Positions 1 through 39,700 of a DNA stretch of 64,000 nucleotides are shown piece by piece. Position numbers and translations under genes: made by a program. Position 1 is the stretch's first letter. Each line of letters begins with the position of its first letter. Origin of the DNA: Carallia brachiata (lineage: Eukaryota; Streptophyta; Magnoliopsida; Malpighiales; Rhizophoraceae). The notes below the pieces were generated by a model. The model was given only the letters and a program-made list of their open reading frames with translations. It was not told the DNA's origin and did no database searches. The stretch covers positions 2,939,553 through 3,003,552 of the forward strand of contig JADCRB010000028.1 of NCBI GenBank assembly GCA_021464245.1, written 5' to 3'.

Positions 1-1209
1 TTGAACACTTATTAGAGGGAATTGAATGCATTTAAAACCCAAAAGGTGTTGGAAATGGTTTTTGCATTGAAATTAAAGGTTTTTGTAAGCATTTATACTT
101 CATTTAAATTAATTTGGGTTAATTAAGCCATTAAAATGTAAGAAAATCACTTATTTGCAAGAAATGAAGTAATTTAGCCTCTTTATATCGTGACACAAAT
201 GGTCTTATGCAACTAATAAATGCAAATTACGATCAATTGAACACTTATTAGATTGAATTGAATGCATTTAACACCCCAAAAGGTGATGGAAATGTTTTTG
301 CGTTGAAATTAAAGGTTTTTTAAGCATTATACTTCATTTAAGTTTAATTTGGGTGAAATGAGCCATTAAATCCAAGAAAATCACCCATTTACAAGAAATA
401 ATGTGATTTATTCTCTTTATCCTTACCACAAATGGTCTTATGGAGCTAATAAATGCAAACTATGATCAATTGCACACTTATTAGAGAGAATTGAATGCAT
501 TTAATACCCCAAAAGGTGTTAGAAATGGTTTTTTGCATTGAAATTAAAGGTTTTTTTAAGAATTTAAACTTCATTCAAGTTTAATTTGGGTTAAATAAGC
601 CATTAAAATGCAAGAAAATCACTTATTTGCATGAAATGAACTAATTTAGCATCTTTATTAATGACACAAATGGTCTTATGCAACTATAAATGCAAATTAT
701 GATCAATTGCACACTTATTAGAGGGAATTGAATGCATTTAACGCCCCAAAAGGTGTTGGAAATGGTTTTTGCATTGAAATTAAAGGTTTTTTTAAGCATT
801 TAAACTTCATTTAAGTTTAATTTGGGTTAAATAACCCATTAAAGTGCAAGAAAATCACTTATTAGCGAGAAATGAAGTAATTTGCATCTTTATACGTGAC
901 ACAAATGGTCTTCTGCAACTAATAAATGCAAATATGATCAATTGCACACTTATTAGGGGAATTGAATGCATTTAACACCCCAAAAGGTGTTGGAAATGGT
1001 TTTTGCATTGAAATTAAAGGTGTTTGTAAGTATTTATACTTCATTTAAGTTTAATTTGGGTTAATTAAGCCATTAAAATGTAAGAAAATCACTTATTTGC
1101 AAGAAATGAAGTAATTTAGCCTCTTTATATCGTGACACAAATAGTCTTATGCAACAAATAAATGCAAATTACGATCATTGAACACTTATTAGAGAGAATT
1201 AAATGCATT
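1..1209 (+). repeat. 237-bp satellite, mixed monomers
   Basis: About five head-to-tail monomers. The anchor TTG before CACACTTATTAG falls near 1, 237, 470 and 707, giving spacings of 236, 233 and 237. Individual monomers differ in variant motifs (for example GGTGATGG with GCGTTG near 280-300, and CTTACCACAAATGG near 422). I see no gene. The segment ends out of monomer phase at the single N at 1210. Confidence 0.96.
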
Positions 1210-1210
1210 N
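1210..1210. other. Single-N assembly join, phase broken
   Basis: One N. The base before it lies near monomer position 19 (end of GAATTAAATGCATT) and the base after it near position 162 (CATCTTTATACGTGAC). The two sides are out of register by about 140 bp, so this is a join of unknown true length, not a miscalled base. Confidence 0.8.
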
Positions 1211-4200
1211 CATCTTTATACGTGACACAAATGGTCTTCTGCACTAATAAATGCAAATTATGATCAATTGCACACTTATTAGAGGGAATTGAATGCATTT
1301 AACACCCCAAAAGGTGATGGAAATGGTTTTGCGTTGAAATTAAAGGTTTTTGTAAGCATTATACTTTATTTAAGTTTAACTTGGTGAAATGAGCCATTAA
1401 AATCCAAGAAAATCACCCATTTACAAGAAATAATGTGATTATTCTCTTTATTCTTACCACAAATGGTCTTATGGAGCAAATAATGCAAACTATGATCAAT
1501 TGCACACTTATTAGAGAGAATTGGATGCAAAAACACCCCACAAGGTGTTTAGAAATGGTTTTGCTTTGAAATTAAAGGACTTTGTAAATTTTTTATCCTC
1601 CATTTAAGTTTAATTTGGGTTTTAAATAAGCCATTTAAACTGCAAGAAAATCACTTATTAGCGAGAAATGAAGTAATTTTGCATCTTTATACGTGACACA
1701 AATGGTCTTCTGCAACTAATAAATGCACATTATTATCAATTGCACACTTATTAGAGGGAATTGAATGCATTTAACACCCCCAAAGGTGTTGCAAATGGTT
1801 TTTGCATTCAAATTAAGGATTTTTGTAAGCATTTATCCTTAATTTAAGTTTAATTTGGGTTAAACAAGTCATTAAAAAGTAAGAAAATCACTCATTTGCA
1901 AGAAATGAAGTAATTTAGCCTCTTTATTCATGACACAAGTGGTCTTATGCAACCAATAAATGCAAATTATGATAAATTAAACACTTATTAGAGGGAATTA
2001 AATGCATTTAACACCCCCAAGAGGTGTGGTTGGAATGGTTTTTTACATTGAAATTAAAGGTTTTTGTAAGCATTTATACTTCATTTAAGTTAATTTGGAT
2101 TAAATAAGCCATTAAAATGTAAGAAAATCACTTATTTGCAAGAAAAATGAAGTAATTAGCCTCTTTATTCGTGACAAATGGTTTTACGCAACCAATAAAT
2201 GCAAACTATGATCAATTGCACACTTATTAGAGGGAATTGAATGCATTTAACACCCCAAAAGGTGATGGAAATGGTTTTTGCGTTGAAATTAAAGGTTTTT
2301 GTAAGCATTTATACTTCATTTAAGTTTCATTTGGGTTAAATAAGCCATTAAAGTGCAAGAAACTTATGATCAATTAAACACTTATTAGAGGGAATTAAAT
2401 GCATTTAACACCCCAAGATGTGTTGGAAATGGTTTTTGCATTGAAATTAAAGGTTTTTGTAAGCATTTATACTTCATTTAAGTTTAATTTGGGTTAAATA
2501 AGCCATTAAAGTGCAAGAAAATCACTTATTAGCGAGAAATGAAGTAATTTTGCATCTTTATACGTGACACAAATGGTCTTCTGCAACTAATAAATGCAAA
2601 TTATGATCAATTGCACACTTATTAGAGGGAATTGAATGCATTTAACACCCCAAAAGGTGATGGAAATGGTTTTTGCGTTGAAATTAAAGGTTTTTGTAAG
2701 CATTTATACTTTATTTAAGTTTAACTTGGGTGAAATGAGCCATTAAAATCCAAGAAAATCACCCATTTACAAGAAATAATGTGATTTATTCTCTTTATTC
2801 TTACCACAAATGGTCTTATGGAGCAAATAAATGCAAACTATGATCAATTGCACACTTATTAGAGAGAATTGGATGCATTTAACACCCCACAAGGTGTTAG
2901 AAATGGTTTTTGCTTTGAAATTAAAGGACTTTGTAAATTTTTATCCTCCATTTAAGTTTAATTTGGGTTAAATAAGCCATTAAACTGCAAGAAAATCACT
3001 TATTAGCGAGAAATGAAGTAATTTTGCATCTTTATACGTGACACAAATGGTCTTCTGCAACTAATAAATGCACATTATTATCAATTGCACACTTATTAAG
3101 GGAATTGAATGCATTTAACACCCCCAAAGGTGTGCAAATGGTTTTTGCATTCAAATTAAGGATTTTTGTAAGCATTATCCTTAATTTAAGTTTAATTTGG
3201 GTTAAACAAGTCATTAAAAGTAAGAAAATCACTCATTTGCAAGAAATGAAGTAATTTAGCCTCTTTATTTCATGACACAAGTGGTCTTATGCAACCAATA
3301 AATGCAAATTTGATAAATTAAACACTTATTAGAGGGAATTAAATGCATTTAACACCCAGAGGTGTTGGAAATGGTTTTTTAAATTGAAATTAAAGGTTTT
3401 TGTAGCATTTATACTTCATTTAAGTTTAATTTGGATTAAATAAGCCATTAAAATGTAAGAAAATCACTTATTTGCAAGAAATGAAGTAATTTAGCCTCTT
3501 TATTCGTGACACAAATGGTTTTACGCAACCAATAAATGCAAACTATGATCAATTGCACACTTATTAGAGGGAATTGAATGCATTTAACACCCCAAAGTGA
3601 TGGAAATGGTTTTTGCGTTGAAAATAAAGGTTTTTGTAAGCATTTATACTTCATTTAAGTTTCATTTGGGTTAAATAAGCCATTAAAGTGCAAGAAAATT
3701 ATGATCAATTAAACACTTATTAGAGGGAATTAAATGCATTTAACACCCCAAGATGTGTTGGAAATGGTTTTTGCATTGAAATTAAAGGTTTTTGTAAGCA
3801 TTTGTACTTCATTTAAGTTTAATTTGGGTAAAATAAGCCATTAAGTGCAAGAAAATCACTTATTAGCGAGAAATGAGTATAATTTGCATCTTATACGTGA
3901 CACAATGGTCTTCTGCAACTAATAAATGCAAATTATGATCAATTGCACACTATTAGAGGGAATTGAATGCATTTAACCCCCAAAAGGTGATGGAAATGGT
4001 TTTTGCGTTGAAATTAAAGGTTTTTGTACGCATTTATACTTTATTTAAGTTTAACTTGGGTGAAATGAGCATTAAATCCAAGAAAATCACCCATTTACAA
4101 GAAATAATGTGATTTATTCTCTTTATTCTTACCACAAATGGTCTTATGGAGCAAATAAATGCACTATGATCAATTGCACACTTATTAGAGAGAATTGGAT

Positions 4201-5052: not shown

Positions 5053-7499
5053 CATCTTTATACGTGACACAAATGGTCTTCTGCAACTAATAAATGCAAA
5101 TTATGATCAATTGAACACTTATTAGGGAATTGAATGCATTTAACACCCCAAAAGGTGTTGGAAATGGTTTTGCATTGAAATTAAAGGTTTTGTAAGCATT
5201 TAACTTCATTTAAGTTTAATTTGGGTTAATTAAGCCATTAAAATGTAAGAAAATCACTTATTTGCAGAAATACAGTAATTTCGCCCTTTATTCGTGACAT
5301 AAATGGTTTTACACAACCAATAAATGCAAACTATGATCATTGCCACTTCTTATTATTGAATGCCTTTAACCCCCAAAAGGTGATGGAAATGGTTTTTGCG
5401 TTGAAATTAAAGGTTTTTGTAAGCATTTATACTTCATTTAAGTTTAATTTGGGTGAAATGAGCCATTAAAATCCAAGAAAATCGCCCATTTACAAGAAAT
5501 AATGTGATTTATTCTCTTTATTTTTACCACAAATGGTCTTATGGAGAAAATAAATGCAAACTATGATCAATTGCACACTTATTAGAGGGAATTGAATGCA
5601 TTGAACACCCCACAAGGTGTTAGAAGTGGTTTTTGCATTGAAATTAAAGGACTTTGTATGTATTTATCATTCATTTAAGTTTAATTTGGGTTAAATAAGC
5701 CATTAAAATGTAAGAAAATCACTTATTTGCAAGAAAAGAAGTGATTTAACATCTTTATTTGTGCCACAAATGGTTTTATGTAACTATCAAAACCAAATCA
5801 TGATCAATTGCACACTTATTAGAGAGAATTGAATGCATTTAACGCGCCAAAAGGTGTTGGAAATGATTTTTGTATTGAAATTAAAGGTTTTTGTAAGCAT
5901 TTATACTTCATTTAAGTTTAATTTGGGTGAAATAAGCCATTAAAATGTAAGAAAATTACTCATTTGTAAGAAATAAAGTGATTTAGCCTCTTTATTAATG
6001 ACACAAATGGTCTTATGCAACTAATAAATGCAAATTATGATCAATTGCACACTTATTAGAGGGAATTGGAATGCTTAATATTTAACGCACAAAAGGTGTT
6101 GGAAATGGTTTTTGCATTGAAATTAAAGGTTTTTGTAAGCATTTATCCTTAATTTAAGTTTAATTTGGGGTAAATAAGTCATTAAAAAGTTAGAAAATCA
6201 CTCATTTGCAAGAAATGATGTGATTTAGCCTCTTTATTCTGATACAAGTGGTCTTATGCAACCAATAAATGCAAATTATAATCAATAAACACTTATTAGA
6301 CTGAAGTAAGTATGCATTAACACCCCAAGAGGGTGTTGGAAATGGTTTTTGCATTGAAATTAAAGGTTTTTGTAAGCATTTATACTTCATTTAAGTTTAA
6401 TTTGGGATAAAATAAGCCATTAAAGTGCAAGAAAATCACTTATTAGCGAGAAGAAATGAAGTAATTTTGCATCTTTATACGTGACACAAATGGTCTTCTG
6501 CAACTAATAAATGCGAATTATGATCAATTGCACACTTATTAGAGAGAATTGAATGCATTTAACACCCCAAAAGGTGATGAAAATGGTTTTTGCGTTGAAA
6601 TTAAAGGTTTTTGTAAGCATTTATACTTCATTTAAGTTTAACTTGGGTGAAATGAGCCATTAAAATCCAAGAAAATCACCCATTTACAAGAAATAATGTG
6701 ATTTATTCTCTTTATTCTTACCACAAATGGTCTTCTGCAACTAATAAATGCACATTATGATCAATTGCACACCTATTAGAGGGAATTGAATGCATTTAAC
6801 ACCCCCAAAGGTGTTGCAAATGGTTTTTGCATTGAAATTAAGGATTTTTAAGCATTTATCCTTAATTTAAGTTTAATTTGGGTTAAACAAGTCATTAAAA
6901 AGTAAGAAAAATCACTCATTTGCAAGAAATGAAGTAATTTAGCCTCTTTATTCATGCACAAGTGTCTTATGCAACCAATAAATGCAAATTATGATCAATT
7001 AAACACTTATTAGAGGGAATTAAATGCATTTAACACCCAAGAGGTGTTGGAAATGGTTTTTGCATTGAAATTAAAGGTTTTTGTAAGCATTTATACTTCA
7101 TGTAAGTTTAATTTGGATTAATAAGCCATTAAATGTAAGAAAATCACTTTTGCAAGAAATGAAGTAATTTAGCCTCTTTATTCGTGACACAAATGGTTTT
7201 ACGCAACCAATAAATGCAAACTATGATCAATTGCACACTTATTAGAGGGAATTGAATGCATTTAACACCCCAAAAGGTGATGGAAATGGTTTTTGCGTTG
7301 AAATTAAAGGTTTTTGTAAGCATTTATACTTCATTTAAGTTTCATTTGGGTTAAATAAGCCATTAAAGTGCCAGAAAATCACTTATAAGTGAGAAATGAA
7401 GTAATTTTGCATCTTTATACGTGACACAAATGGTTTCTGCAACTAATAAATGCAAATTATGATCAATTGCACACTTATTAGAGGGAATTTGATGAGAAC
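5053..7499 (+). repeat. 237-bp satellite, mixed monomers before the insertion
   Basis: About ten monomers with no repeated order that I can see. A rare variant at 5752-5800 (GTGCCACAAATGGTTTTATG followed by TAACTATCAAAACC) also occurs at 22711-22765. The last monomer is cut at 7499 by the retroelement; its GAATT (7495-7499) is the left target duplication. No coding content. Confidence 0.95.
7495..7499. repeat. Left target-site duplication, GAATT
   Basis: GAATT lies directly outside the left TGATG terminus and is repeated at 9840-9844 outside the right terminus. Intact monomers read GAGG-GAATT-GAATGC, so exactly one extra GAATT has been added. That is the 5-bp duplication expected from an LTR-element integrase. 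Confidence 0.92.
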
Positions 7500-8306
7500 C
7501 CCGCGGATAGCACATAAAGACCCAACGCCTATAGGGAGACGCGAACCCCACGGATACACCGAAAGACCCACGAACGAGATTGAAATCACAACCCAAGGAA
7601 AGCCAAGTCAGGTTTGAAGGAACCTTGACCCAACGTCTATATAGAGACGCGAACCAAAGGTATAAGAGAAGGATATAGTCGCCACACCCTAGAAAAGAAA
7701 GAAGGAGGGTGATAAGACTTGGGTTGAACGCCACAAGGAGGTCTCCTTGATAAGTTCGGTAAAAGAATTTTGAAACTCTAAAGAACGATTGTTCTCAAAT
7801 CATAATTCATCAAAATTATTCCATGCTTAAAATAAAAGTCTTACAAGCCTTTTATAGGCAAACCCAAATAGTGAGGGTTTTAAACCTACTAAGCTTAGAA
7901 AACCTACTAAGACTAAAAAACCAAGTTCCTACACAAATAAGGAAAACCTAATTCAACTAGAAACTTGAAAATTAAAACTAATTCCTACTTGCAAACGGAT
8001 TGGGCTTAAATAAAACATTGTTTGGCCCAAAACAACAATTAAAACTCTAAGCTAAACAATCCAAATCAGTCCCACAAATAGTCTTGTATGCATTAGGCCC
8101 AAATAATTCTTGTTGGCCCAATCTTCCTCAATTTGGTTAACACTCCTCTTCTTGCACTTGGATCACATTGATGTAGACTTGTAGGACCTCCAATCTTCAT
8201 TGCTTGCTCCACAAGTAAAGCACGTTTCTTGCTCTCCAAGGAAAGTCCACTGAGCCATAAAATCACACCAAATCATGTAGTGAGGGTGCTAGCCAGACTC
8301 ACATCA
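7500..8306 (-). mobile_element. Left LTR, minus orientation (807 bp)
   Basis: Read on the minus strand, it starts TGATGTGAGTCTGG at 8306 and ends in CTCATCA at 7500, with TG...CA ends and TGATG/CATCA terminal inverted repeats. Reading by eye I count roughly 20-25 differences from the right LTR. The first ~230 bases (U3 start) are identical and most differences fall towards the U5 end, including a G-to-T change five bases inside the terminus. A TATA box lies at 7850-7856. Transcription from it would run leftward into the satellite. Confidence 0.9.
7850..7856 (-). promoter_or_regulatory. TATA box of left LTR
   Basis: TATAAAA on the minus strand within GCCTATAAAAGGC, about 450 bp into the LTR from its U3 end. 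It is conserved in the inverted partner at 9475-9481. This is the expected place for a retrotransposon core promoter; activity is not shown by sequence. Confidence 0.6.
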
Positions 8307-8320
8307 TTCCCCCTTTCTTC
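8307..8320 (-). promoter_or_regulatory. Polypurine tract next to left LTR
   Basis: On the minus strand a 14-base all-purine run (GAAGAAAGGGGGAA) abuts the TGATG start of the LTR. This is the plus-strand primer site for reverse transcription in LTR elements. It also encodes part of the pol tail, so coding and priming signals overlap. Confidence 0.85.
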
Positions 8321-8590
8321 AAAAAGATTTGTCCTCAAATCTTGCTGTCGTTCTACTTCAAAACCTGGAGGAATGTCTTGAGCTACAAGGAATTGATGTT
8401 TCCCATGCCAAAGAAATAGATACTTAGAGTATTTTGATGCCTTCACCGCAAAGCAAAATCTCCTCTTTTGAATTGCCACCAAGCGATCAAACAAAGAATA
8501 TGAGCTAAGGTGGTTCAGCACTTGATCTGCAATGACAAAATCAACATGAGTAGACACATTAAGCATAGAATCAACAAAATCCATTGGTTG

Positions 8591-8742
8591 TGGTGTAGTT
8601 GAACTGAATGGTAGCTCTATAGTAGGGCATTTTGCTAACTCTCCACCATCTACTAATTCAACTTCATGCACGGATTCCACATCCAATTCACAATCTTCCA
8701 CAAGTTGAAGCTTATGGCCTTTAAATTCACATTCTACAACAT
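8591..8742 (-). other. Spacer (loop) of the retroelement palindrome
   Basis: These 152 bp occur once and separate the inverted arms. On the minus strand the spacer continues the left arm's pol frame without interruption, so it is genuine upstream pol sequence and not filler. Its outer edges are an 8-bp inverted microhomology: ATTGGTTG at 8583-8590 and CAACCAAT at 8743-8750. This is the geometry expected for a loop left by a snapped-back cDNA strand. Confidence 0.85.
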
Positions 8743-9059
8743 CAACCAATGGATTTTGTTGATTCTATGCTTAATGTGTCTACTCATGTTGATTTTGTCA
8801 TGTAGATCAAGTGCTGAACCACCTTAGCTCATATTCTTTGTTTGATCGCTTGGTGGTAATTCAAAAGAGGAGATTTTGCTTTGCGGTGAAGGCATCAAAA
8901 TACTCTAAGTATCTATTTCTTTGGCATGGGAGACATCAATTCCTTGTAGCTCAAGACATTCCTCCAGGTTTTGAAGTAGAACGACAGCAAGATTTGAGGA
9001 CAAATCTTTTTGAAGAAAGGGGGAATGATGTGAGTCTGGCTAGCACCCTCACTACATGA
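8743..9059 (+). pseudogene. Ty3/gypsy-like pol, C-terminal fragment (right arm)
   Basis: Inverted copy of the left-arm fragment, starting at the microhomology CAACCAAT. Compared with 8307-8590 it has lost one T and gained a C-to-T change near 8800 (CATTGCAG became CATGTAG), which shifts the frame and creates a TAG stop. Past that point the frame is open from about 8811 to TGA at 9057-9059, carrying the same LFLWHG, DIPPGFEVE and DLRTNLFEE segments. Two further substitutions are visible (GGCAATT to GGTAATT, GGGAAAC to GGGAGAC). It cannot encode a functional product. Confidence 0.75.
9012..9025 (+). promoter_or_regulatory. Polypurine tract next to right LTR
   Basis: GAAGAAAGGGGGAA directly precedes the LTR start TGATGTGAG at 9026. 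It is identical to the left copy. It fixes the LTR boundary and confirms that LTR 9026-9839 is in 3'-LTR position relative to the right-arm pol fragment. Confidence 0.87.
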
Positions 9060-9450
9060 TTTGGTGTGATTTTATGGCTCAGTGGACTTTCCTTGGAGAG
9101 CAAGAAACGTGCTTTACTTGTGGAGCAAGCAATGAAGATTGGAGGTCCTACAAGTCTACATCAATGTGATCCAAGTGCAAGAAGAGGAGTGTTAACCAAA
9201 TTGAGGAAGATTGGGCCAACAAGAATTATTTGGGCCTAATGCATACAAGACTATTTGTGGACTGATTTGGATTGTTTAGCTTATAGTTTTAATTGTTGTT
9301 TTGGGCCAAACAATGTTTTATTTAAGCCCAATCCGTTTGCAAGTAGGAATTAGTTTTAATTTTCAAGTTTCTAGTTGAATTAGGTTTTCCTTATTTGTGT
9401 AGGAACTTGGTTTTTTAATCTTAGTAGGTTTTCTAAGCTTATTAGGTTTA

Positions 9451-9459
9451 AAACCCTAA
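9451..9459 (+). promoter_or_regulatory. Telobox-like AAACCCTAA upstream of TATA
   Basis: AAACCCTAA ends 15 bp before the TATA box. The telobox is a known motif in plant promoters. In the left LTR the same site reads AAACCCTCA, so the motif has been lost or was never complete there. A chance match is possible in AT-rich DNA. Confidence 0.4.
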
Positions 9460-9474
9460 CTATTTGGGTTTGCC

Positions 9475-9481
9475 TATAAAA
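9475..9481 (+). promoter_or_regulatory. TATA box of right LTR
   Basis: TATAAAA inside GCCTATAAAAGGC, conserved with the left LTR. Initiation would be expected about 30 bp downstream, leaving roughly 330 bp of R-U5 before the element ends. Confidence 0.62.
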
Positions 9482-9759
9482 GGCTTGTAAGACTTTTATT
9501 TTAAGCATGGAAGAATTTTGATGAATTATGATTTGAGAACAATCGTTCTTTAGAGTTTCAAAATTCTTTTACCGAACTTATCAAGGATACCTCCTTGTGC
9601 CGTTCAACCTAGACTTATCACCCTCCTTCTTCCTTTTCTAGGGTGTGGCGTCTACAAATCTTCTTATACCTTTGGTTTGCGTCTCCATATAGACGTTGGG
9701 TCAAGGTTCCTTCAAACCTGACTTGGCTTTCCTTGGGTTGTGATTTCAATCTCGTTCGT

Positions 9760-9838
9760 GGGTCTTTCGGTGTATCCGTGGGGTTCGCATCTCCCTATAG
9801 GCGTTGGGTCTTTCGGTGCTATCCGCGGGGTTCGCATC
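9760..9838 (+). repeat. Degenerate tandem repeat in U5 (46-47 bp)
   Basis: GGGTCTTTCGGTG begins at 9760 and again at 9806, each followed by an ATCCG(T/C)GGGGTTCGCATC-type ending at 9791 and 9838. The second unit supplies the CATCA terminus. The left LTR holds the same duplication in reverse with changes (TTTATGTGC for TTTCGGTGC in the outer unit). Confidence 0.8.
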
Positions 9839-9839
9839 A

Positions 9840-9844
9840 GAATT
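9840..9844. repeat. Right target-site duplication, GAATT
   Basis: Perfect partner of 7495-7499. It is followed at once by GAATGCATTTAACACC, the normal continuation of the interrupted monomer. Confidence 0.92.
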
Positions 9845-9958
9845 GAATGCATTTAACACCCCAAAAGGTGTTGAAAATGGTTTTTGCATTGAAATTAAAG
9901 GTTTTTGTAAGCATTTATACTTCATTTAAGTTTAATTTGGGTTAATTAAGCCATTAAA
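9840..9958 (+). repeat. Satellite monomer remainder up to the gap
   Basis: This is the first half of a monomer, completing the one cut at 7499. It reads from GAATT through GGGTTAATTAAGCCATTAAA and stops near monomer position 119 at the N run. Confidence 0.93.
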
Positions 9959-10370
9959 NNNNNNNNNNNNNNNNNNNNNNNNNNNNNNNNNNNNNNNNNN
10001 NNNNNNNNNNNNNNNNNNNNNNNNNNNNNNNNNNNNNNNNNNNNNNNNNNNNNNNNNNNNNNNNNNNNNNNNNNNNNNNNNNNNNNNNNNNNNNNNNNNN
10101 NNNNNNNNNNNNNNNNNNNNNNNNNNNNNNNNNNNNNNNNNNNNNNNNNNNNNNNNNNNNNNNNNNNNNNNNNNNNNNNNNNNNNNNNNNNNNNNNNNNN
10201 NNNNNNNNNNNNNNNNNNNNNNNNNNNNNNNNNNNNNNNNNNNNNNNNNNNNNNNNNNNNNNNNNNNNNNNNNNNNNNNNNNNNNNNNNNNNNNNNNNNN
10301 NNNNNNNNNNNNNNNNNNNNNNNNNNNNNNNNNNNNNNNNNNNNNNNNNNNNNNNNNNNNNNNNNNNNNN
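9959..10370. other. Assembly gap, 412 N
   Basis: Flanks are satellite on both sides. The left flank stops at monomer position ~119 and the right flank resumes at ~66 (TTGTTAGCATTT). A gap of 420 would keep perfect register, so 412 is close to in-phase. It probably hides about 1.75 monomers. Confidence 0.9.
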
Positions 10371-33900: not shown

Positions 33901-36780
33901 TACCTAATTAAGTTTAATTTGGGTTAAATAAGCCATTTAAATGAAGAAATAAACTATTTTCAAGAAATAACGTAATTCAGCCTTTTATTGTGACACATGG
34001 TCTTATGCAGCATCTAAATGCAAATTACGATCAATTGAAACTTTATTAGAGGGAATTGAATGCATTTAGCTCCTAAAAGGTGTTGGAAATGGTTTTTACA
34101 TTGAAATTAAACGTTTTCGTCAGCTTTTATACTTTATTTAAGTTTAATTTGGGTCAAATAAGCCATTAAAATGCGAGAAAATCACTAATTTGCGAGAAAT
34201 GAAGACTTTCGCCTCTTTATTCGTGACACAAATGATCTTATGCAAACTAATAAATACAAATTACGATCAATTGAACAATATTAGGAGGGAATTGAAAGCA
34301 TTTAAACACGCCAAAAGGTGTTGGAAATGGTTTTTGCATTGAAATTAAAGGTTTTTGTAAGCATTTATACTTCATTTAAGTTTAATTTGGGTTAAGTAAG
34401 CATTTAAAGTGCAAGAAAATCACTTATTAGCGAGAATGAAGTAATTTGCATCTTTATTTGTGACACAATGGTCTTATGCAACAAATAAATTCAAATTATG
34501 ACCAATTGCCCACTTATTAGAGGAAATGAAGGTAATTTAATATCCCCAAAGGTGTTGCAAATGGTTTTTACATTGAAATTAAGGTTTTTGTAAGCATTAT
34601 CCTTAATTTAAGTTTAATTTGGGTTTAAATAAGTCATTAAAAAGTAAGAAAATCACTCATTTGTAAGAAATGAAGTGATTTAGCCTCTTTATTCATGACA
34701 CAAGTGGTCTTTTATGCAACCACTAAAAAATTACGATCAATTAAACCTCTTATTAGAGGGAATTAAATGCATTTAACACCCAAGAGTGTGATTGGAAATG
34801 GTTTTGCATTGAAATTAAAGGTTTTTGTAAGCATTTATACTTCATTTAAGTTTAATTGGGTTAAATAAGCCATTAATTAAAGTGCAAGAAAATCACTTGT
34901 TAGCGAGAAATGAAGAAGTAATTTGCATCTTTATACGTGACACCACAATGGTCTTCTGCAACTAATAAATGCAAATTATGATCATTGCACACTTATTAGA
35001 GGGAATTGAATGCATTTAACACCCCAAAAGGTGTTGGAAATGGTTTTTGCATTGAAATTAAAGGTTTTGTAAGTTTATACTTCATTTAAGTTTAATTTGG
35101 GTTAATTAAGCCATTAAAATGTAAGAAAATCACTTATTTGTAAGAAATGAAGTAATTTAGCTCTTTATTCGTGACACAATAGTCTTATGCAACAAATAAA
35201 TGCAAATTACGATCAATTGAACACTTATTAGGAGAATTATATGCATTTAACACCCCAAAGAGGTGTTGGAAATGGTTTTGCATTGAAATTAAATATTTTT
35301 GTAAGCATTTATACTTCATTCAAGTTTAATTTGGGTTAAATAAGCCATTAAAATATAAGAAAATCACTTATTTTCAAGAAATGAAGTAATTTAGCCTCTT
35401 CATTCACGACACAAATGGTCTTATGCAGTTAATAAATGCAAATTACGATCAATTGAACACTTATTAGAGGGAATTGAATGCATTTAACACCCCAAAAGGT
35501 GTTGGAAATGGTTTTTGCATTGAAATTAAAGGTTTTTGTAAGCATTTATACTTCATTCAAGTTTAATTTGGCTTAAATACGGCTTTTTAAAATCCAAGAA
35601 AATCACTTTTTGCAAGAAATGAAGTGATTTAGCCTCTTTATTCGTGACACAAATGGTCTTGTGCAACCAATAAATGCAAATTTTGATCAATGCACACTTA
35701 TTGGAGGGCATTGAAAGCATTTACACCACCAAAAGGTGTTGGAAATGGTTTTTGCATCTAAATTAAAGATTTTTGGAATCATTTATACCTAATTAGTTTA
35801 ATTGGGTTAAATAAGCCATTTAAATGCAAGAAAATAACTTATTTTCAAGAAGATAACGTAATTCAGCCTTTTTATTTGTGACACAAATGGTCTTATGCAG
35901 CTAATAAATGCAAATTACGATCAATTGAACATTTATTAGAGGGAATTGAATGCTTTAGCTCCTCAAAAGGTGTTGGAAATGGTTTTTACATTGAAAGTAA
36001 ACGTTTTCGTAAGCTTTTATACTTTATTTAGTTTAATTTGGGTCAAATAAGCCATTAAAATGCGAGAAATCACTAATTTGCGAGAAATGAAGTAATTAGC
36101 CTCTTTATTCGGACACAAATGATCTTATGCAACTAATAAATACAAATTACGATCAATTGAACAATTATTAGAGGGAATTGAAAGCATTTACACGCCAAAA
36201 GGTGTTGGAAATGGTGTTTTGCATTGAAATAAAGGTTTTTGTAAGCATTTATACTTCATTTAAGTTTAATTTGGGTTAAGTAAGCCATTAAAGTGCAAAA
36301 AAATCACTTATTAGCGAGAAATGAAGTAATTTTTGCATCTTTATTTGTGACACAAATGGTCTTATGCAACAAATAATTCAAATTATGACCAATTGCCCAC
36401 TTATTAGAGGAAATTGAATGTATTTAATATCCCAAAGGTGTTGCAAATGGTTTTTACATTGAATTAAAGGTTTTTGTAAGCATTTATCCTTAATTTAAGT
36501 TTAATTTGGGTTAAATAAGTCATTAAAAGTAAGAAAATCACTCATTTGTAAGAAATGAAGTGATTTAGCCTCTTATATCATGACACAAGTGCTCTTATGC
36601 AACAATAAATGCAAATTATGATCAATTAAACACTTATTAGAGGAATTAATGCATTTAACACCCCAGGAGGTATTGGAAATGGTTTTTGCATCGAAATTAA
36701 AGGTTTTTGTAAGCATTTATACTTCATTTAAGTTTAATTTGGGTTAAATAAGCCATTAAAGTGCAAGAAAATCATTTATA
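24901..36780 (+). repeat. 8-monomer higher-order repeat, about six copies
   Basis: The marker TGGCTTAAATACGGC starts at 26181, 28074 and 29967 (1893 bp each), then at 31834, 33691 and 35569 (steps of 1867, 1857 and 1878). The CACGCCAAAAGG marker at 24921 and 26810 (1889 bp) extends the repeat leftward. The shortfall from 1893 in later copies comes from scattered short deletions rather than loss of monomers. The first two copies look nearly identical. The segment ends out of phase at the N at 36781. No gene. Confidence 0.93.
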
Positions 36781-36781
36781 N
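36781..36781. other. Single-N assembly join, phase broken
   Basis: The left side stops near monomer position 138 (ATCATTTATA) and the right side begins near position 56 (TAAAGGTTTTTG). The HOR type also changes from 8-monomer to 27-monomer. This is a contig join of unknown real length. Confidence 0.8.
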
Positions 36782-39700
36782 TAAAGGTTTTTGTAAGCAT
36801 TTATACTTCATTTAAGTTTAATTTGGGTTAAATAAGCCATTAAAGTGCAAGAAAATCACTTATTAGCGAGAAATGAAGTAATTTTACATCTTTATACGTG
36901 ACACAAATGGTCTTCTGCAAGTAATAAATGCAAATTATGATCAATTGCACACTTATTAGAAGGAATAGAATGCATTTAACAACCCAAAAGGTGTTGGAAA
37001 TGGTTTTTGCCTTGAAATTAAAGGTTTTTGTAAGCATTTATACATCGTTTAAGTTTAATTTGGGTTAAATAAGCCATTAAAGTGCAAGAAAATCACTTAT
37101 TAGCGAGAAATGAAGTAATTTTACATCTTTATACGTGACACAAATGGTCTTATGCAACTAATAAATGCAAATTACGATCAATTGCACACTTATTAGAGGG
37201 AATTGAATGCATTTAACACCCCAAAAGGTGTTCGAAATAGTTTTTGCATTGAAATTAAAGGTTTTTGTAAGCTTTATACTTCATTTAAGTTTAATTTGGG
37301 TTATTAAGCCATTAAAATGTAAGAAAATCACTTATTAAAGAAATGAAGTAATTAGCTCTTTATTCGGGACACAAATGGTCTTATACAACTAATAAATGCA
37401 ATTACGATCAATGAACACTTATTAGAGGGAATTGAATGCATTTTACACCCAACAAGTGTTGGAAATGGTTTTTGCATTGAAAAAATTAAACGTTTTGTAA
37501 GCATTTATACTTCATTTAAGTTTATTTTGGGTTAATAAGCCATTAAAATGTAAGAAAATCACTTATTTGCAAGAAGTGAAGTAATTTAGCCTCTTTATTC
37601 GTGACACAAATGGTTTTATGCAACTAATAAATACAAATTACGATCAATTGAACACTTATTGAGGGAATTGAATGCATTTAACACCCAAACGGTGATGGAA
37701 ATTGTTTTGCGTTGAATTGAAGGATTTTGTAAGCATTTCTACTTCATTTAAGTTTAATTTGGGTGAAATAAGCCATTAAATGTAAGAAAATCACTTCTTT
37801 TGCATGAAATGAACTAATTTGCCTTTTATTAATGACACAAATGGTCTTATGCAACTAATAAATGCAAATTATAATCAATTGCACACTTATTAGAGGAATT
37901 GAATGCATTTAACGACCCCAAAAGGTGTTAGAAATGGTTTTTGCATTGAAATTAAAGGTTTTTTAAGCATTTAAACTTCATTCAAGTTTAATTTGGGTTA
38001 AATAAGCCGATTAAAGTGTAAGAAAATCACTTATTTGTAGAAATGAACTAATTTAGCCTCTTTATTAATGACACAAATGGTCTTATGCAACTAATAAATG
38101 CAAATTATGATCAATTGCGCCACTTATTAGAGGAATTGAATGCATTTAACGACCCAAAAGGTGTTGGAAATGGTTTTTGCATTGAAATTAAAGGGTTTTG
38201 TAAGCATTTATACTTCATTAAGTTTAATTTGGTTAATACGCTTTAAAATCCAAAAAAAATCACTTATTTGCAAGAAATGAAGCGATTTAGCCTCTTTATT
38301 CGTGACACAAATGGTCTTGTGCAACCATAAATGCAAATTTTGATCAATTGCACACTTATTGGAGGGAATTGAAAGCATTTAACACCCAAAGGTGTTGGAA
38401 TGGTTTTTGCATCTAAATTAATGGTTTTTGTAGCATTTATACCTAATTTAAGTTTAATTTGGGTTAATAAGCCATTTAAATGCAAGAAAATGACTTATTT
38501 CAAGAAATAACGTAATTCAGCCTTTTTATTGTGACACAAAAATGGTCTTATGCAGCTAATAAATGCAAATTACGATCAATTGGACAACTTATTAGAGGGA
38601 ATTGAATGCATTTAACACCTCAAAAGGTGTTGGAAATGGTTTTTGCATTGAAATTAAAGGTTTTCGTAGCTTTATACTTTATTTAAGTTTAATTTGGGTT
38701 AAATAAGCCATTAAATGCAAGAAAATCACTATTTCGGAAATGAAGTAATTTAGCCTCTTTATTCGTACACAAATGATCTTATGCAACTAATAATACAAAT
38801 TACGATCAATTGAACAATTATTAGAGGGAATTGAAAGTATTTAACACCCAAAAGGTGTTGGAAATGTTTTTGCATTGAATTAAAGGTTTTGTAAGCATTT
38901 ATATTCATTTAAGTTTAATTTGGGTTAAATAAGCCATTAAAGTGCAAGAAAATCACTATTAGCGAGAAATGAAGTAATTTGCATCTTTATAGTGACACAA
39001 ATGGTCTTATGCAACTAATAAATGCAAATTACGATCAATTGCACACTTATTAGAGGGCATTGTTGCATTTAACACCCAAAAGGTGTTGGAAATGGTTTTT
39101 ACATTGAAATTAAAGGTTTTTGTAAGCATTTATACTTCATTTAATTTAAGTTTAATTTGGGTAATAAGCATTAAAAGTAAGAAAATCACTTATTTGCAAG
39201 AAATGAAGTAATTTACCCTCTTTATTCGTGACACAAATGGTTATGCAACAAATAAATGCAAATTATGACCAATTGCCCACTTATTAGGGGAATTGAATGC
39301 ATTTAATACCCCCAAAGGTTGTTGCAAATATTTTTTGTTTGAAATTAAGGGTTTTTGTAAGCATTTATCGTTAATTTAAGTTTAATTTGGGTTAAATAAG
39401 TCATTAAAAGTAAGAAAATCACTCATTTGCAGAAATGAAGTGATTTAGCCTCTTTATTCATGACACAGTGGTCTTATGCAATCAATAAATGCAAATTATG
39501 ACCAATTAAACACTTATTAGGGAATTAAATGCATTTAACACCCCAAGAGGTGTTGGAAATGGTTTTTACATTGAAATTAAAGGTTTTTGTAAGCATTTTA
39601 CTTCATTTAAGTTTAATTTGGGTTAAATAAGCCATTAAAGTGCAAGAAAATCACTTATTACGAGAAATGAAGTAATTTTACTCTTTATACGTGACACAAA

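What the first reader, a model, noticed from the sequence alone, without database searches (positions are those of the whole stretch)
7500..9839. Retroelement inserted as an inverted dimer with U5 at both ends
Seen: two LTRs in opposite orientation, each next to its own polypurine tract and pol tail, outer ends both the CATCA (U5) end, and a perfect GAATT duplication outside. Known: integrase normally joins the U3 end of one LTR and the U5 end of the other, and LTRs of one element are direct repeats. Inference: a palindromic cDNA with two U5 ends was integrated as one molecule. I do not know of this arrangement as a named class of plant element.
Basis: partly seen in the sequence, partly recalled or inferred. 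Interest (0 to 1): 0.9.

Follow-up and report, generated by a model that had tools for sequence, protein, structure and literature searches.

The report
Back-to-back inverted retrotransposon halves
Inside a satellite array sits a 2.35-kb insertion made of two copies of the tail end of one LTR retrotransposon joined in opposite directions, most likely a reverse-transcription accident that the element's own integrase inserted as one piece.

Summary
Window 7490-9839 (2350 bp) is an inverted dimer in a ~237-bp satellite array. Each half reads coding tail, polypurine tract, full LTR (817 and 814 bp), with U5 ends outside. A perfect GAATT duplication flanks it; joining the flanks gives a normal satellite monomer (100 of 101 nt). 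It is not a perfect palindrome: arms of 1101 and 1097 bp differ by 26 substitutions, and a 152-nt spacer belongs to the left copy. Best reading: an aberrant cDNA with two U5 ends was integrated as one molecule (0.68), more likely from two joined, unfinished minus strands than from one that copied itself. Arm differences crowd into the presumed R-U5 part (19 of 338 substitutions, against 7 of 759 elsewhere), which favours two separately primed strong-stop DNAs; with neighbouring differences collapsed this is only modestly significant (65 of 2000). The main rival, two opposite insertions at equivalent satellite positions plus a deletion, is weakened, not excluded, because GAATT recurs in the array. 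No relative was obtained: 17 requests to the genome search did not complete. One locus, gapped assembly, no reads. A new variant of template-switched complex LTR insertions.

The parts
7485..7489 (.). left copy of the 5-bp target duplication GAATT
   Evidence: read directly
7490..8306 (-). left LTR (817 bp), U5 end outside at 7490, U3 end inside at 8306; TG..CA ends
7848..7856 (-). TATA-box-like TATAAAAGG of left LTR; promoter would point outward (left)
   Evidence: read directly; meaning of the motif recalled
8307..8319 (-). polypurine tract AAGAAAGGGGGAA beside left LTR
   Evidence: meaning of the motif recalled
8273..8764 (-). open frame (163 aa, stop to stop) of the left copy's coding tail, running through the spacer and ending inside the LTR; its first 22 nt (8743-8764) belong to the right arm
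   Evidence: no Pfam family, no homologue
8591..8742 (-). 152-nt spacer, the part of the dimer without an inverted partner; coding sequence of the left copy
8742..8743 (.). inner junction between the two copies; the right copy begins CAACCAATGG at 8743
8743..9025 (+). right copy's coding tail (270 nt against 423 nt in the left copy), out of frame with the left copy by a 1-nt gap; polypurine tract at 9013-9025
9026..9839 (+). right LTR (814 bp), U3 end inside, U5 end outside at 9839; TATAAAAGG at 9475-9483 points outward (right)
9840..9844 (.). right copy of the target duplication GAATT

Best explanation
One integration of an aberrant LTR-retrotransposon cDNA that carried a U5 end at each terminus (0.68 is for this, however the cDNA was made; the self-copying version, listed as a rival, takes 0.15 of it). 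Most likely steps: two related RNAs shared a particle (inferred); each primed its own minus-strand strong-stop DNA (R-U5), moved to a 3' end and copied U3, purine tract and 0.42 or 0.27 kb of coding tail, then stopped (inferred); the two unfinished strands were joined by their inner ends, by template switch or by host microhomology end-joining (inferred), giving U5-R-U3-PPT-tail/tail-PPT-U3-R-U5; integrase, whose two normal ends look alike here, used two U5 ends and made a 5-bp staggered insertion into a satellite monomer (shown: exact LTR ends, GAATT duplication, restored empty site). The result is a dead copy: only LTRs and coding tails are present.
For: Exact TG..CA LTR ends on both sides with GAATT duplication. 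Joined flanks match two array monomers at 100 of 101 nt and, over 224 nt, at best 219; 10 real monomers had median 219 (215-224) and 10 random chimeric halves 214.5 (207-223). Arms are truncated 152 nt apart. U3 and U5 ends agree at 8 of 12 positions, reached by 98 of 20000 random pairs. Substitutions between arms: tail 3/283, U3 4/476, R-U5 19/338; all difference columns 21/340 against 9/761, Fisher p 9e-6. Precedents: in Arabidopsis Onsen most recombination products within LTRs fit the first template switch in R (PMC5668417, passages); strong-stop transfer between co-packaged RNAs proposed for mini-Tnt1 (PMC2923131, passages); a review says alt-EJ factors use PBS microhomology to join minus and plus cDNA strands, and that plants have alt-EJ (PMC12786077, passages).
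Against: Single locus; no family member and no second case obtained. Collapsing differences to 19 events weakens the clustering (65 of 2000 permutations) and moves the best change-point to column 830, inside U3; with all 30 columns it is at 1000, 86 nt past the assumed R start. R start (TATA+27) is an assumption. GAATT recurs in the satellite, and 2 of 10 chimeric controls fitted the array better than the real flanks. Microhomology at the inner junction cannot be proven without the native left sequence. Gene conversion between arms could also leave the outer part more diverged. The published alt-EJ step joins minus to plus strand at the PBS, not two minus strands.
Confidence: 0.68

Rival explanations
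1. Self-primed snap-back (a version of the same single integration, its share is counted within the 0.68): one minus-strand cDNA stopped in the coding tail, folded on itself with a ~152-nt loop and copied itself back to U5; the hairpin was later opened or copied and integrated.
For: The loop-sized spacer belongs to one copy only, as a fold-back predicts. Some extra similarity beyond the junction between donor end and landing site: 331 of 20000 random placements as good when anchored at the junction, 132 of 20000 for a local match in another register.
Against: Arms should have been identical at birth, yet substitutions are 5.6% in R-U5 and 0.9% elsewhere (19/338 and 7/759). A hairpin has one free U5 end and needs a further unexplained step. 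The loop region (8570-8746) folds no better than shuffles as DNA (z -0.79; 40 of 200 shuffles as good).
Confidence: 0.15
2. Two independent insertions of the same family in opposite orientation at the same position of two satellite monomers, followed by a deletion that joined their coding tails.
For: The satellite repeats the same target, so matching GAATT on both outer sides needs no single event; two random positions share a 5-mer with P 0.0051, and an integrase preferring one position of the monomer would raise this. R-U5 differs, as in different members.
Against: Also needs both deletion ends within 152 nt in element coordinates and near-identical U3 plus tail (7 of 759 substitutions). The flank halves fit the array as well as real monomers do, though 2 of 10 chimeric controls did better.
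Confidence: 0.12
3. Assembly chimaera at one of the junctions.
For: Satellite array with a 412-nt N run starting 119 nt away and single N's at 1210, 36781 and 52360. No reads were available.
Against: No N inside the insert; the arms differ from each other; the flanks are not inverted copies, so it is not an unsplit hairpin read; both outer junctions fall exactly on LTR ends with a 5-bp duplication.
Confidence: 0.1
4. A long-TIR or foldback DNA transposon mistaken for two LTRs.
For: Inverted arms and terminal TGATG; no protein family matched, and no related copy was obtained to prove that the arms are LTRs.
Against: Each arm has a purine tract immediately before TG and a TATA-like box inside the LTR, and in each copy an open frame ends shortly after the tract, the layout of the 3' end of an LTR element (recalled).
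Confidence: 0.06

Closest known systems
Template-switching complex LTR retrotransposon insertions (Sabot and Schulman 2007, PMC1950507; whole held text, figures not seen)
   Same: One insertion with 5-bp duplication, built from two co-packaged templates during reverse transcription
   Different: Theirs have three LTRs and two complete cores with highly alike outer LTRs, in one orientation as I read the text; here two LTRs are inverted, the cores are short tails, and both outer ends are U5
Onsen recombinant LTRs in Arabidopsis (PMC5668417, passages)
   Same: U3 and R/U5 parts of one LTR from different family members, consistent with the first template switch
   Different: No inverted dimer in the passages seen; here a different-member origin of R-U5 is inferred, not shown
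Autointegration circles and retroviral circles with an inverted segment (a 1980 MLV title in a reference list; Ty1 autointegration circles in passages of PMC12786077; rest recalled)
   Same: Aberrant cDNA forms made by integrase, some with inverted parts
   Different: Circular and self-targeted; no linear two-U5 molecule with a host-site duplication outside
Natural transposon inverted duplication that silences its family (Mu killer; reference titles only)
   Same: Inverted duplication of part of a transposon
   Different: Different element and origin; here the LTR promoters would point outward, so a hairpin RNA would need read-through from the satellite (inference)

Membership tests
LTR retrotransposon (class) | LTR with TG..CA ends next to a polypurine tract | tested here: met
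   both arms
LTR retrotransposon (class) | two LTRs in direct orientation around a full internal region with PBS, gag and pol | tested here: not met
   LTRs inverted; only coding tails between them
LTR retrotransposon (class) | short (5-bp) target-site duplication | tested here: met
   GAATT on both sides; weakened by the repeated satellite context
Ty3/gypsy superfamily | pol domain order and domain homology | not testable with these tools
   only a coding tail is present; no Pfam hit for 2 frames, no homologue. A DLRTN-type tail resembles plant gypsy polyprotein ends, recalled only
Template-switching complex (Sabot and Schulman) | flanking duplication that marks a single integration | tested here: met
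   single integration favoured, not proven
Template-switching complex (Sabot and Schulman) | internal third LTR and two complete cores | tested here: not met
   two LTRs only, inverted, tails only
DIRS-like or other retroelement whose normal form has inverted repeats | a family of copies with this structure; in DIRS a tyrosine recombinase and no duplication (recalled) | tested here: inconclusive
   a duplication is present; copies could not be searched

The most novel reading that the evidence does not exclude
A natural product of concerted integration of two U5 ends: two unfinished minus-strand cDNAs from one particle, each with its own strong-stop DNA from a different family member, joined tail to tail and inserted as one molecule, so that the arms keep a record of two priming events.
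Probability: 0.42. Interest if true: 0.68.

Novelty: new variant of a known kind. Interest (0 to 1): 0.5.

Why it matters
It would show that an integrase in a living host can complete a two-ended insertion with two U5 ends, that unfinished cDNAs can be rescued by joining their inner ends, and that two minus strands are started in one particle. LTR finders that look for direct repeats would miss such inverted dimers, so they may be under-counted; as inverted repeats they are possible sources of hairpin RNA and instability in satellite arrays (all inference).

Tried and rejected
Family copies were sought with the genome search (own genome, right LTR): 17 identical requests, none answered. The coding tail gave no Pfam family at E<=1 (2 frames), no homologue among 26 candidates at E<=0.001 or E<=10, and no relative in viral contigs (8 pattern matches, 0 confirmed) or genome contigs (63 pattern matches, 0 confirmed). 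By their descriptions the last two hold viral and prokaryote contigs, so this says little about a plant-like element. Rfam: 0 matches at gathering score in 7400-9950.

Rejected by reasoning: chromosomal fold-back duplication (it would carry the flank along inverted; both flanks here are direct satellite joined at the exact LTR ends); nested insertion (one element's own ends would meet the outer duplication). A strong self-folding loop got no support.

A mend made on checking: one search used wrong borders for tail and U3 (columns 337/338 instead of 436/437); one search gives the right ones.

Literature: 10 counted searches. No title or abstract start in their listings described a U5/U5 inverted LTR dimer, but 6 listings were capped (25 of 51, 15 of 34, 15 of 125, 20 of 883, 12 of 19, 15 of 31), and most papers of subscription journals are missing from the library. 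Passages also seen: PMC7215508, PMC2857682 (reference list only), PMC11624286, PMC5371799.

Full report
What is there. Apart from one insert at 7490-9839 and a few N's, the 64-kb window is a satellite array of about 237-bp units. Inverted arm pairs of 460, 351, 178, 59 and 47 nt are 91-100% complementary. Aligned in element sense, the left copy (8742->7490, 1253 nt) and the right copy (8743->9839, 1097 nt) share 1101 columns with 26 substitutions and 4 one-base gap columns; the left copy has 152 nt more inside. From the middle outward each copy has a coding tail (423 nt left, 270 nt right), AAGAAAGGGGGAA, and an LTR beginning TGATGTGAG and ending CATCA: 817 bp left, 814 bp right. The U5 ends face out. 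The left coding tail is open across the spacer (163 aa stop to stop, its first codons coming from the right arm), so the spacer is native sequence of the left copy; the right copy is shorter and out of frame by a 1-nt gap.

Integration signature. GAATT stands on both sides. Flanks joined with one GAATT match two array monomers at 100 of 101 nt; over 224 nt the best match is 219, against 10 real monomers with median 219 (215-224) and 10 random chimeric halves with median 214.5 (207-223), 2 of which exceed 219. The site is clean, but the array makes the duplication less telling: two random array positions share a 5-mer with P=0.0051, and GAATT itself has P=0.0037.

Where the arms differ. Taking R to start 27 nt after the TATA box (an assumption), substitutions are 3/283 in tail plus purine tract, 4/476 in U3 and 19/338 in R-U5 (which corrects the segment borders). 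Counting all 30 difference columns: 21/340 against 9/761, Fisher p 9e-6; the densest 100 columns hold 15, reached by 0 of 20000 permutations. A two-rate change-point on all columns falls at 1000 (0 of 2000 permutations as strong). These columns are not independent: with differences within 4 nt collapsed to 19 events the best change-point is at 830, inside U3, and 65 of 2000 permutations are as strong. There are 14 transitions and 12 transversions. The pattern suggests older differences in R-U5, as expected if two strong-stop DNAs came from different members. It is suggestive, not proof; gene conversion of the inner arms is an alternative.

Inner junction. On the plus strand the left copy reads ...CTACAACAT and the right copy starts CAACCAATGG; the right copy's native upstream sequence, read from the left copy, is ...CTACACCA. 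Compared beyond the junction, 331 of 20000 random placements are as good when anchored there, and 132 of 20000 for the best local match, which is in another register. The spacer region folds no better than shuffles (z -0.79, 40 of 200 as good). Without a full-length relative the length of any microhomology is unknown.

Mechanism. Shown: two LTR copies inverted, exact outer U5 ends, 5-bp duplication, restored empty site. Inferred: two unfinished minus strands, joined at inner ends, integrated by two U5 ends. The U3 and U5 ends agree at 8 of 12 positions, including TGATG (98 of 20000 random pairs do as well), so the same integrase could plausibly use either. Precedents: LTR recombinants of Onsen that fit the first switch (PMC5668417, passages), strong-stop transfer between co-packaged RNAs proposed for mini-Tnt1 (PMC2923131, passages), alt-EJ joining of minus and plus cDNA strands at the PBS, reported for a fly and a mouse element, and alt-EJ present in plants (review PMC12786077, passages), multi-template complexes with duplications (PMC1950507, held text). 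None of these, in what I saw, shows two minus strands joined. Because U3 promoters would point outward, the copy would not by itself transcribe its own hairpin (inference).

Limits. No relatives were obtained: the genome search was unanswered 17 times and other collections gave none. Plant origin and Ty3/gypsy affinity are therefore recalled impressions. The assembly has a 412-nt gap starting 119 nt away. It is a single case. I score it as a probably real, unusual insertion, a new variant of template-switched complex insertions. The 0.68 covers any single integration of a two-U5 cDNA, with the snap-back version (0.15) inside it.

Noticed in passing
1-64000: Apart from the insert, TRF covers nearly the whole window with a ~237-bp satellite, with local rows of 84, 90, 158, 390 and ~470 bp near 1-4087 and 36698-36863; its host and function were not identified.
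   Followed up: partly
1210, 36781, 52360, 9959-10370: Three single N's and one 412-nt N run; two of the single N's (1210 and 36781) lie where TRF rows end or begin, so they may be contig joins.
   Followed up: no
7519-7556 and 7627-7664: A 38-nt motif occurs twice in the outer part of the left LTR, 108 nt apart, 82% identical; the second lies at the edge of the stretch where the arms differ most.
   Followed up: no
36698-36863: An 84-bp unit repeated twice at 98% match, spanning the single N at 36781, perhaps an assembly overlap left unmerged.
   Followed up: no
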